A stretch of DNA of 64,000 nt from Microvirga sp. Mcv34 (GTDB lineage Bacteria > Pseudomonadota > Alphaproteobacteria > Rhizobiales > Beijerinckiaceae). Positions 7,922 to 13,774 of the stretch are shown piece after piece; the stretch's first letter is position 1; the number at the start of each line of letters is the position of its first letter. Position numbers and translations under genes: made by a program. The DNA is taken from NCBI RefSeq assembly GCF_024519725.1, contig NZ_JALJRK010000004.1:103473-167472 (forward strand). Direction: 5' to 3'. A model generated the notes under the pieces. It saw nothing but the letters and a program-made list of their open reading frames with translations. It did no database searches and was not told where the DNA came from.

Positions 7922-10900
7922 ATGTCACAAGTCGAAACCACCACTTTGCAGCTTGATCCCAGGCTGCTCCTCAAGACATTGCGCGCCTTGAGAAGAGGCG
8001 ACTTTTCCGCCCGCCTGCCGTCGGACTTGACCGGCATCGACGGTGAGATCGCAGAGGCCTTCAACGACATTGCCGACCTGAACCAGGGTCTCGCGCAGGA
8101 ACTGGAGCGCGTCGCCAAGGTCGTCGGCAAGGAGGGACGCATTGAGGAGCGCGGGCGCCTTGCGGGGGCGACCGGCTGCTGGAGCGAGTGCATCGATTCG
8201 GTGAACGCCATGATCGGCGACATCGTCCAGCCGACGATCGAGGTGGCGCGCGTGATCGGCGCGGTCGCAAAAGGCGACCTGAGCCAGACGATCGACCTGG
8301 CGACCGATGGGCGCCCCCTGCGCGGCGAATTCCTGCGCATCGGCAAAGTGGTCAACACCATGGTTGGCCAGCTCGGCAGCTTCGCTTCCGAAGTGACCCG
8401 CGTGGCGCGCGAGGTGGGCTCGGAAGGTAAGCTCGGCGGACAGGCGAAGGTCAAAGGCGTGGCCGGCACCTGGAAGGACCTGACCGAGAACGTGAACCTG
8501 ATGGCGGCCAATCTGACCGGACAGGTGCGTAACATCGCCGAGGTCACGACGGCGGTGGCGAACGGCGATCTCTCGAAGAAGATTACCGTCGATGTGAAAG
8601 GCGAGATCCTCGAGTTGAAGGACACCATCAACACGATGGTGGACCAGCTCAATTCCTTTGCGTCCGAAGTGACGCGCGTTGCGAAGGAGGTCGGCACCGA
8701 AGGCAAGCTCGGCGGGCAGGCCCAGGTGCGCGGCGTCGCCGGCGTGTGGAAGGACCTCACCGACAACGTCAACATGATGGCGGCCAACCTCACTGGTCAG
8801 GTGCGAAACATCGCCGAGGTCACGACGGCCGTCGCCCGGGGCGACCTGTCGAAGAAGATCACCGTCGACGTGAAAGGCGAGATCCTCGCCCTCAAGTCGA
8901 CCATCAACACCATGGTGGACCAGCTCAACTCCTTCGCCTCGGAAGTGACGCGCGTGGCGAAGGAGGTCGGCTCGGAAGGCAAGCTCGGCGGGCAGGCGCA
9001 GGTGGAGGGCGTCGGTGGCGTCTGGCGAGACCTCACCGAGAACGTGAACATGATGGGTTCGAACCTCACCGCGCAGGTTCGTAACATCGCCGAGGTGACC
9101 ACGGCCGTGGCGAACGGCGACCTGTCTAAGAAGATCACCGTGGAGGTTCGTGGCGAGATCCTCGAGCTGAAGAACACCATCAACACGATGGTGGACCAGC
9201 TCAACTCCTTCGCGTCCGAAGTCACCCGCGTGGCGAAGGAAGTCGGGTCGGAAGGCAAGCTCGGCGGTCAGGCGCAGGTGCGGGGCGTGGCCGGAACCTG
9301 GAAGGACCTCACCGACAACGTAAACCTCATGGCGGCGAACCTGACGGGACAGGTGCGCAACATCGCGGAAGTCACGACCGCTGTCGCTAATGGCGACCTG
9401 TCGAAGAAGATCACCGTGGAGGTGCGCGGTGAGATCCTCGAGCTGAAATCGACCATCAACACCATGGTGGACCAGCTCAACTCCTTCGCTGGAGAAGTGA
9501 CCCGCGTGGCCAAGGAGGTCGGCTCGGAAGGCAAGCTCGGTGGGCAGGCCCGCGTGGAAGGTGTGGCCGGCATCTGGAAGGACCTGACCGATAACGTCAA
9601 CCTCATGGCGGCGAATCTGACGGGTCAGGTACGTAACATCGCGGAAGTGACGACGGCCGTCGCGAACGGCGATCTGTCCAAGAAAATCACCGTCGATGTG
9701 CGCGGTGAGATTTTGGAACTCAAGTCCACCATCAATACGATGGTCGACCAGCTCAATTCCTTCGCGGGCGAGGTGACCCGCGTGGCGCGTGAAGTGGGTA
9801 CCGAGGGCAAGCTTGGCGGGCAGGCGCAGGTGCGCGGCGTTGCCGGCGTGTGGAAGGACCTGACCGACAACGTCAACATGATGGCGGCCAACCTCACAGG
9901 TCAGGTGCGAAATATCGCCGAGGTGACCACAGCCGTGGCGAACGGCGACCTGTCGAAGAAGATCACCGTCGCGGTCGAAGGCGAGATTCTGGAGCTGAAA
10001 TCGACCATCAACACCATGGTCGATCAGCTCAACTCCTTCGCGGGCGAAGTGACGCGCGTGGCGCGCGAAGTGGGCACGGAAGGTAAGCTCGGCGGACAGG
10101 CCCAGGTTCGCGGCGTCGGCGGCGTCTGGAAGGACCTGACCGAGAACGTGAACATGATGGCGGCGAACCTGACGGGACAGGTGCGCAACATCGCCGAGGT
10201 GACCACGGCGGTCGCGAACGGCGATCTGTCCAAGAAAATCACCGTCGACGTGCGTGGTGAGATCCTCGAGCTGAAATCGACCATCAACACCATGGTCGAT
10301 CAGCTGAACTCCTTCGCGTCCGAAGTCACCCGCGTGGCCCGCGAGGTGGGCATCGAAGGCAAGCTCGGTGGACAGGCGCAGGTGCGGGGCGTGGCCGGCA
10401 CCTGGAAGGATCTCACCGACAACGTCAACATGATGGCCGACAACCTCACCGGTCAGGTGCGCGGCATCGCCAGCGTGGTGACGGCGGTCGCCGAGGGCGA
10501 CCTCAAGCGCAAGCTCATCGTAGATGCGAAGGGCGAGATCGCGGCGCTTGCCGAGACCATCAACGAAATGATCGACACCCTTGCGACCTTCGCCGACCAG
10601 GTGACGAACGTCGCCCGCGAAGTGGGTGTGGAAGGCAAGCTGGGAGGGCAGGCGAGGGTGCCGGGAGCTGCCGGCCTGTGGCGCGATCTCACCGATAACG
10701 TGAACCAGCTCGCGGCCAACCTGACCACGCAGGTTCGCGCGATCGCGGACGTGGCCACCGCCGTGACCAAGGGCGATCTTACTCGGTCGATCTCGGTGGA
10801 AGCCTCGGGCGAGCTCGCCTCGCTCAAGGACAACGTGAACGAGATGATCCGCAATCTGCGCGACACGACGCTCAAGAACGCGGAGCAGGATTGGCTCAAG

Positions 10901-13774: not shown

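What the first reader, a model, noticed from the sequence alone, without database searches (positions are those of the whole stretch)
7922..13774. Bacterial Nik1-like poly-HAMP hybrid kinase without membrane anchor
Eleven HAMP-type units (seven nearly identical, 92 residues each) precede GAF, kinase core and three receivers in a soluble protein. Fungal group III kinases, which sense osmotic stress and are fungicide targets, use the same 92-residue repeat layout. The stimulus and output here are unknown, and the glycogen-trehalose block 30 kb away makes osmotic or desiccation sensing an attractive guess.
Basis: partly seen in the sequence, partly recalled or inferred. Interest (0 to 1): 0.75.

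Follow-up and report, generated by a model that had tools for sequence, protein, structure and literature searches.

The report
Stress-promoter poly-HAMP hybrid kinase pair
A soil bacterium (Microvirga) carries a very long, membrane-free sensor kinase built from repeated HAMP segments, of a kind already known in other bacteria and resembling a fungal stress kinase; the new part is that it sits in a two-gene unit with a second kinase, behind a conserved promoter motif of the type used by the bacterial general stress response.

Summary
ORF 7922-13774 (1950 aa) has eleven 92-residue units (each a pair of HAMP domains; seven 86-96% identical), then GAF, HisKA, HATPase and three receivers, and no membrane segment. 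It is not rare: 7998 proteins and 586 loci came back from capped searches, a homologue of its N-terminal units is solved (9trk), and bacterial group III-like kinases AskA, AskB and Amb07 are in print. It differs from fungal Nik1 by a GAF domain and two extra receivers.

What is new lies beside it. A second gene (13771-15882, REC-PAS-HK-REC) overlaps the stop codon as ATGA in 18 of 18 Microvirga loci, an arrangement like askB-askC; 63 of 80 loci have a receiver-bearing gene within 300 nt. Upstream, GGAAC-N16-CGTT, the sigma-EcfG general-stress motif, lies at -129; it is exact at -128 to -132 in 15 of 17 assessable Microvirga loci while its spacer is near random. treZ carries the same motif (17 of 19). 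So the stress guess gains support from shared regulation, not proximity. Stimulus and output remain unknown.

The parts
7793..7817 (+). sigma-EcfG-type promoter motif GGAAC-N16-CGTT, -129 from the kinase start codon
   Evidence: exact match; exact at -128..-132 in 15 of 17 assessable Microvirga loci, one mismatch in the other two; boxes invariant in the 15, spacer 35% and 5' flank 34% pairwise identity
7922..13774 (+). poly-HAMP hybrid histidine kinase, 1950 aa
7922..8473 (+). divergent N-terminal units 1-2 (residues 1-184); counterpart covered by solved homologue 9trk/9trj
8474..10405 (+). seven near-identical 92-residue HAMP-pair units (units 3-9)
10406..10957 (+). divergent units 10 and 11 (the end of the last one overlaps the GAF limits)
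10937..11353 (+). GAF domain (residues 1006-1144)
11672..11875 (+). HisKA dimerisation/phosphoacceptor domain, H-box HELRTP at residue 1260
12017..12370 (+). HATPase_c, N- and G-box motifs present
12557..12874 (+). receiver 1, phosphoacceptor motif TLDIGLP
12911..13276 (+). receiver 2, phosphoacceptor motif VVDLGLP (limits approximate, set by eye)
13352..13690 (+). receiver 3, phosphoacceptor motif LVDIMMP
13771..13774 (+). ATGA overlap of kinase stop and partner start
   Evidence: ATGA in 18 of 18 Microvirga loci
13771..15882 (+). partner hybrid kinase REC-PAS-HisKA-HATPase-REC, 703 aa
59575..59599 (-). same sigma-EcfG-type motif, -61 from the treZ start; suggests the same regulon
57718..59538 (-). 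treZ (malto-oligosyltrehalose trehalohydrolase), the gene directly behind that motif

Best explanation
The locus is a two-gene signalling operon transcribed by the alphaproteobacterial general-stress sigma factor EcfG. Gene 1 is a cytosolic poly-HAMP hybrid kinase of the bacterial group III-like kind (AskA/AskB/Amb07); gene 2 is a REC-PAS-HK-REC kinase, probably translationally coupled, in the position of AskC. Shown by sequence: domain content, intact phosphorylation motifs, the overlapping pair, the conserved promoter motif. Inferred: transcription by EcfG; the dimeric stack of about 22 HAMP domains works as a long two-state rod that holds the kinase core in one signalling state; the GAF domain (and/or a protein bound to the rod) shifts that state; phosphate passes from the kinase histidine to its receivers and to the N-terminal receiver of the partner, whose own kinase and C-terminal receiver carry the signal on to a response regulator not encoded in the pair. 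If EcfG makes the pair, the system is produced when the cell is already under stress and then measures something about that stress; osmotic or drying stress is plausible but unproven.
For: Domains and motifs. ATGA overlap in 18 of 18 Microvirga loci and a receiver-bearing gene within 300 nt downstream in 63 of 80 loci (14 without one, 2 at contig ends, 1 without a HAMP-HK ORF). AskC lies immediately downstream of askB (PMC7643160), and the receiver of AskC interacted with Rec3 of AskA in a two-hybrid test (same paper, passage). Promoter: exact GGAAC-N16/17-CGTT at -128..-132 in 15 of 17 assessable Microvirga loci, one mismatch in the other two, spacer and 5' flank near chance identity; GGAAC-N16-CGTT is printed for R. 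etli EcfG1 (PMC3892343 passage); the genome has PhyR, NepR and a neighbouring ECF sigma gene, with the motif upstream of nepR and phyR; outside Microvirga it is exact in 5 of 28 alphaproteobacterial loci against 0 of 52 others.
Against: No expression data. The motif has only 9 fixed bases and occurs 151 times in the genome against 94 for the reversed control, so single sites prove little; the case rests on conservation. The 3' flank is conserved too (63%). In 23 of 28 other alphaproteobacterial loci no exact motif was found within 300 nt (start codons estimated), Methylobacterium L001 included; loci with at most one mismatch are 10 of 28 against 5 of 52, a noisier contrast. The genome has nine NepR-model matches, eight over the cut-off, so the general-stress circuit may be multiple. 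Kinase activity, phosphotransfer between the two proteins and the role of the HAMP array are untested. No output regulator is identified.
Confidence: 0.6

Rival explanations
1. It is an osmotic or desiccation sensor working like fungal Nik1: water stress changes the HAMP rod and switches the kinase.
For: Fungal relatives with the same 92-residue HAMP pairs act in osmotic stress, and deleting repeats changes their kinase state (PMC3848655 passages). Kinase operon and treZ share a conserved EcfG-type motif; in Sphingomonas melonis the treY-malQ-treZ-glgX cluster and one orphan hybrid kinase depend on EcfG (PMC6599016 passages). M. xanthus AskABC are involved in the glycerol response (PMC7643160). 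Kinase and TreZ are both present in 17 of 25 Microvirga genomes (kinase only 1, TreZ only 2, neither 5; Fisher 0.002).
Against: EcfG regulons answer many stresses, so promoter sharing does not name the stimulus. Co-occurrence is not corrected for kinship. The 30-45 kb linkage (14 of 14 same-contig Microvirga genomes) looks like backbone synteny. Of 28 genomes from other groups that hold the kinase, several show no full-length TreZ match. The protein has a GAF domain that Nik1 lacks. AskC binds a small molecule, weakly.
Confidence: 0.25
2. It regulates the adjoining uronate-type genes (TRAP transporter, KduI-, KduD- and cupin-like genes upstream; SDR, FAD oxidase and enolase-family genes downstream; names read from the sequence).
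For: They flank the operon directly in the window.
Against: The upstream block is next to the kinase in only 4 of 15 relatives with enough upstream sequence (L115, L116, L118, L119), while the kinase-partner pair is kept in all 17 relatives examined; a terminator-like hairpin and a gap of about 540 nt separate them. Some downstream genes are kept more often.
Confidence: 0.06
3. It is a DNA-binding kinase as proposed for AskB: helix-turn-helix-like pieces in the HAMP region bind a promoter directly.
For: The Pfam SpoIIID model (45.7 bits, cut-off 27) and, below its cut-off, HTH_6 match the array here; SpoIIID-like pieces are reported for AskA, AskB and Amb07, HTH_6 pieces for AskA and AskB, and AskB bound PmrpC DNA in vitro (PMC7643160).
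Against: In one search these matches have 0 stretches that pass on their own; they sum weak matches over repeats and lie on the HAMP array, which suggests a model artefact.
Confidence: 0.07
4. The conserved GGAAC-N16-CGTT is not an EcfG promoter but another conserved element or inherited sequence.
For: No transcription start mapped; the 3' flank is also conserved (63% pairwise); distance to the start codon (about 130 nt) is longer than for treZ (about 60 nt).
Against: In the 15 exact loci only the two boxes are invariant while spacer and 5' flank are near random; the position is fixed; nepR and phyR of the same genome carry the motif.
Confidence: 0.1

Closest known systems
Myxobacterial AskA, AskB and Amb07 (bacterial 'group III' hybrid kinases; PMC7643160: abstract, passages, and part 1 of 2 of section 7 read)
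   Same: Soluble, more than five HAMP units, histidine kinase, several receivers; a further hybrid kinase (AskC) lies immediately downstream of askB. Proteins named Myxococcus in the list are 62-67% identical over 98-99% of the query (which of them, if any, is AskA or AskB was not established).
   Different: Different phylum and setting; here the pair sits behind an EcfG-type motif; ambruticin or glycerol response unknown; sequence relation of the partner to AskC not tested.
Fungal group III hybrid kinases (Nik1, Bos1, TcsC; PMC3848655, PMC3418262, PMC11253588: passages read)
   Same: N-terminal repeats of concatenated HAMP pairs of 92 residues (CaNik1p), no membrane segment, HisKA and HATPase domains, receiver.
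   Different: Fungal: 5-6 repeats, one receiver, HOG pathway. Here: 11 repeats, GAF domain, three receivers, bacterial operon partner. No direct alignment made.
PDB 9trk/9trj, 'histidine kinase,Gcn4p'
   Same: Covers the counterpart of residues 8-291, E 1.8e-125: the N-terminal units of a close homologue are structurally solved.
   Different: A fusion construct; source organism and paper not seen.
Aer2 poly-HAMP chemoreceptor of Pseudomonas aeruginosa (PMC3570549: passages read)
   Same: Chained divergent HAMP domains in a soluble receptor; HAMP conformers propagate opposite signals.
   Different: Five HAMP domains, heme PAS, chemoreceptor output instead of a kinase.

Membership tests
Fungal group III hybrid histidine kinase (Nik1 type) | N-terminal array of about 92-residue repeats, each a concatenated HAMP pair | tested here: met
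   Array with exact 92-residue period; HAMP and HAMP_2 models match. Fungal feature from PMC3848655 (passage).
Fungal group III hybrid histidine kinase (Nik1 type) | No transmembrane segment | tested here: met
   Highest 19-residue hydropathy 1.67, in a receiver.
Fungal group III hybrid histidine kinase (Nik1 type) | Signalling module of HisKA, HATPase and one receiver, without a further domain after the HAMP array | tested here: not met
   GAF domain between array and HisKA, and three receivers.
Fungal group III hybrid histidine kinase (Nik1 type) | Kinase core and repeats group with fungal sequences in an alignment or tree | not tested
Fungal group III hybrid histidine kinase (Nik1 type) | Feeds the HOG pathway; response to fludioxonil-type compounds | not testable with these tools
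   Needs experiments.
Bacterial group III-like poly-HAMP hybrid kinase (AskA/AskB/Amb07) | Soluble, more than five HAMP units, histidine kinase, several receivers | tested here: met
   definition from PMC7643160.
Bacterial group III-like poly-HAMP hybrid kinase (AskA/AskB/Amb07) | Second hybrid kinase immediately downstream (as askB-askC) | tested here: met
   REC-HK-REC gene with ATGA overlap in 18 of 18 Microvirga loci. Homology of the partner to AskC itself not tested.
Bacterial group III-like poly-HAMP hybrid kinase (AskA/AskB/Amb07) | Ambruticin or glycerol response | not testable with these tools
   Needs experiments.
Sigma-EcfG (general stress response) regulon member | Promoter motif GGAAC-N16-CGTT (R. 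etli EcfG1) upstream, conserved | tested here: met
   motif printed in PMC3892343 (passage).
Sigma-EcfG (general stress response) regulon member | Genome encodes PhyR, NepR and an EcfG-like sigma factor | tested here: met
   PhyR NF006623 367.7 bits over cut-off 240; NepR PF18557 65.3 bits over 25.7; adjacent ECF sigma gene NF009192 311.6 over 307 (model named only RNA polymerase sigma factor).
Sigma-EcfG (general stress response) regulon member | Expression lost in an ecfG mutant | not testable with these tools
   Needs experiments.

The most novel reading that the evidence does not exclude
The pair is a general-stress amplifier in Alphaproteobacteria that works as the bacterial counterpart of the fungal Nik1 stress switch: EcfG makes it, the HAMP rod reads the state of the cytoplasm, and the partner kinase feeds back on the PhyR-NepR-EcfG core. 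In three other alphaproteobacterial loci (L009, L036, L078) the partner is a REC-PAS-HWE kinase, the family to which most PhyR-activating kinases belong (PMC6599016 passage), as such a feedback would predict. Against it: none of these three has the motif within 300 nt of the estimated start (L078 has an exact one at -336), and the Microvirga partner is HisKA, not HWE.
Probability: 0.15. Interest if true: 0.75.

Novelty: new member of a known kind. Interest (0 to 1): 0.43.

Why it matters
Poly-HAMP hybrid kinases are encoded in thousands of bacterial proteins, yet in the papers and passages seen here only the myxobacterial ones have a function, and how fungal group III kinases sense stress is not settled in those passages. 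A bacterial pair with a fixed operon partner and an EcfG-type promoter motif gives a concrete regulon, a concrete partner and simple deletion and reporter tests. My one search for papers holding 'HAMP', 'EcfG' and 'hybrid histidine kinase' together found none, in an open-access library only.

Tried and rejected
Uronate regulation from neighbouring genes: rejected, the upstream block is next to the kinase in 4 of 15 relatives with enough sequence. Trehalose link by distance: 30-45 kb in 14 of 14 same-contig Microvirga genomes, but the interval keeps backbone genes with other inserts in the three genomes checked (G013, G015, G018), and in three actinobacterial genomes with megabase contigs (L043, L062, L074) TreZ lies about 0.5 to 4 Mb away, if contig C1 is the same record; distance is not used as evidence. 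Recent duplication of the seven units: rejected; silent codons differ at 0.37 of shared sites within the window against 0.46 for random synonymous draws. HTH-like Pfam matches: treated as artefact (0 passing stretches). Fungal relatives: two protein searches list no protein named as fungal among 120 rows each, many rows being unnamed; the kinase-core tree was therefore not built. Rfam on 5000-20000: no match. GAF profile (53 of the 80 sequences available) against PDB: only weak GAF matches, best 1.1e-5 to a cGMP phosphodiesterase; no ligand can be inferred. Paper searches for the 9trk source and for bacterial homologues of group III kinases gave little. In the first motif count L027 and L004 had been left out; L027 has no motif (now counted, 28 loci), L004 is cut at the contig start. 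The Fisher values were made with 27.

Full report
OBSERVATION. The ORF at 7922-13774 (+) is real and encodes 1950 residues. It holds a 276-nt tandem array. Eleven GD[LF] anchors occur at residues 26 to 951, all 92 apart except one step of 97. Units 3-9 are 86-96% identical, unit 10 63-70% to them, unit 11 38-39%. Pfam places HAMP and HAMP_2 on the array, then GAF_2 (1006-1144), HisKA (1251-1318), HATPase_c (1366-1483) and three receivers. Phosphorylation and nucleotide-binding motifs are present in the kinase and phosphoacceptor motifs in all receivers. No stretch is as hydrophobic as the membrane proteins of the window. Each unit is best read as a pair of HAMP domains, as printed for CaNik1p: five repeats, nine HAMP domains, pairs of 92 residues (PMC3848655, passages).

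HOW COMMON IT IS. The host is a Microvirga: the named proteins nearest in sequence (P0009, P0010, P0031, P0043) are 95-98% identical and all Microvirga. By their record titles these 80 come from Alpha-, Beta- and Gammaproteobacteria, Bacteroidota, Actinomycetota, cyanobacteria and others. Among 67 of the 80 with a full-length ORF, my domain scan finds three receivers in 30, two in 8 and one in 29, always after a GAF and a kinase core. In a draw of 385 alphaproteobacterial genomes, the window's own included, 22 had a strong array match. In the genus, 18 of 25 genomes have the gene; in the other 7 and in the 16 genomes from other families of the order the best match is no better than E 4e-58, and the places listed for them cover only kinase core and receivers. 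A homologue of residues 8-291 is solved as 9trk.

THE PARTNER GENE. The next gene, 13771-15882, encodes REC-PAS-HisKA-HATPase-REC (the listed ORF starts earlier, but ATG 13771 overlaps the kinase stop). The ATGA overlap is present in 18 of 18 Microvirga loci (window and L115-L131), and my scan labels the next gene REC-HK-REC in all 18 (PAS was not scanned for). In the 80 loci, 63 have a receiver-bearing gene starting within 300 nt downstream, 14 do not, 2 end too soon and 1 has no HAMP-HK ORF. The scan under-calls kinases: among ten partners given to Pfam, two labelled 'REC' carry HisKA_3 (L029, L011), L009 and L036 ('RECx2'), and L078 in a later call, are REC-PAS-HWE-REC, while L043 (Streptomyces), L062 (Nonomuraea) and L005 (Nostoc) are receivers only. 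In Myxococcus xanthus AskC is encoded immediately downstream of AskB (PMC7643160), and the receiver of AskC interacted with receiver 3 of AskA (passage). The arrangement is thus alike; whether the partner is homologous to AskC was not tested.

THE PROMOTER. At 7793-7817, 129 nt before the start codon, lies GGAAC-N16-CGTT. This is the motif printed for R. etli EcfG1 (PMC3892343, passage). Of the 18 Microvirga loci one (L131) cannot be assessed; of the other 17, 15 have the exact motif at -128 to -132 (N16 or N17), and L124 (TGTT, -131) and L119 (GAAAC, -134) have one mismatch. Over the 15 exact loci the spacer shows 35% and the 5' flank 34% pairwise identity, near chance, while the boxes are fixed; the 3' flank is 63%. 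The whole genome has 151 exact motifs against 94 for the reversed pattern, so conservation and position carry the argument. Positive control: PhyR (NF006623), NepR (PF18557) and a neighbouring ECF sigma gene were found, with the motif 103 nt before nepR and 74 nt before phyR; the genome has nine NepR-model matches, eight over the cut-off, and only this locus was examined. Outside Microvirga, 28 alphaproteobacterial loci with 300 nt upstream gave 5 exact (both Mesorhizobium loci, G072, G345, G429) and 10 with at most one mismatch; 52 non-alphaproteobacterial loci gave 0 and 5 (Fisher 0.0036 and 0.0056 for 27 loci, not corrected for kinship; start codons estimated; 6 of the 21 drawn genomes could not be assessed). 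The exact sites outside Microvirga lie at varied places (-93 to -233).

THE TREHALOSE BLOCK. glgC, glgA, glgX, glgB, a malQ-treY fusion, treZ and a second glgA lie at 45308-61333 (ORFs; TreZ and the MalQ-TreY fusion confirmed, the others named by me from the sequence). treZ has the same motif at 59575-59599 (-), 61 nt before its start; it is exact in 17 of 19 Microvirga treZ upstream regions, absent in G006 and G023. The window has two further exact matches, on strands opposite to the ORFs there, taken as chance; about 1.9 were expected with spacers of 15-18. In Sphingomonas melonis the treY-malQ-treZ-glgX cluster and an orphan hybrid histidine kinase depend on EcfG (PMC6599016, passages); the word HAMP does not occur in that paper's text. 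Kinase and TreZ are 30-45 kb apart in all 14 Microvirga genomes that have both on one contig; in three others with both they are on different contigs; G001 has the kinase only, G002 and G023 TreZ only, five neither. In G013, G015 and G018 the interval keeps the same backbone genes with different inserts. I therefore use the shared motif, not the distance, as evidence.

MECHANISM. Shown: parts, overlap, promoter motif. Inferred from known families: HAMP dimers relay helix movements between two conformers (Aer2 work, PMC3570549, passages); in fungal group III kinases deleting repeats changes kinase state (PMC3848655, passages). By analogy the array here is a two-state rod upstream of GAF and kinase. 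The GAF is well conserved across the 53 members aligned of 80 available (63% mean column identity) but its ligand cannot be told. Pfam finds no histidine phosphotransfer domain and no credible DNA-binding domain in the pair, so the output probably acts through the partner's receivers or an unlinked regulator.

HOW THE ARRAY EVOLVES. The seven units differ at 0.37 of shared synonymous codons (random draws 0.46) yet are 91% identical as protein (mean pN 0.07, pS 0.49): they are old and under strong purifying selection. Against the two closest orthologues (L115, L116) the array is more silent-divergent than the rest of the gene (0.26-0.42 against 0.16-0.30), and units match best by position in only 6 of 9 and 3 of 9 cases. 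This fits exchange between units at constant length. In more distant orthologues the contrast vanishes or reverses (for example L122, L123), as saturation would make it. All 14 near-full-length Microvirga orthologues compared keep a chain of nine 92-spaced units.

VERDICT. A confirmed but not rare bacterial poly-HAMP hybrid kinase; not a Nik1 member by architecture, though it may work like one. The addition that matters is the conserved kinase pair behind a conserved EcfG-type motif, shared with treZ. The stimulus is unknown.

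Noticed in passing
8474-10405: Seven HAMP units nearly identical as protein but approaching silent-site saturation, with more silent divergence from the two closest orthologues than the rest of the gene: looks like exchange between units at fixed copy number; not seen in distant orthologues.
   Followed up: partly
L009:16225-18165, L036:16791-18698, L078:16182-18152: The partner gene is an HWE-family kinase (REC-PAS-HWE_HK-REC) in these three loci instead of a HisKA kinase.
   Followed up: partly
7922-10957: SpoIIID and HTH_6 Pfam models match the HAMP array only by summing weak repeats (0 stretches pass alone); the same kind of match was read as putative DNA-binding pieces in AskA/AskB (PMC7643160).
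   Followed up: partly
L129, L130 (G014, G003): The kinase is split into two ORFs inside the HAMP array; draft-assembly error or real break not decided.
   Followed up: no
52883-57721: malQ-treY fusion gene of 1612 aa whose start overlaps the treZ stop; two glgA-like genes, one ending at 48033 and one at 59807-61333.
   Followed up: no
   Followed up: no
7820-7921: The roughly 100 nt between the motif and the start codon is conserved in most of the 17 Microvirga loci aligned; a leader element is possible, no Rfam match.
   Followed up: no
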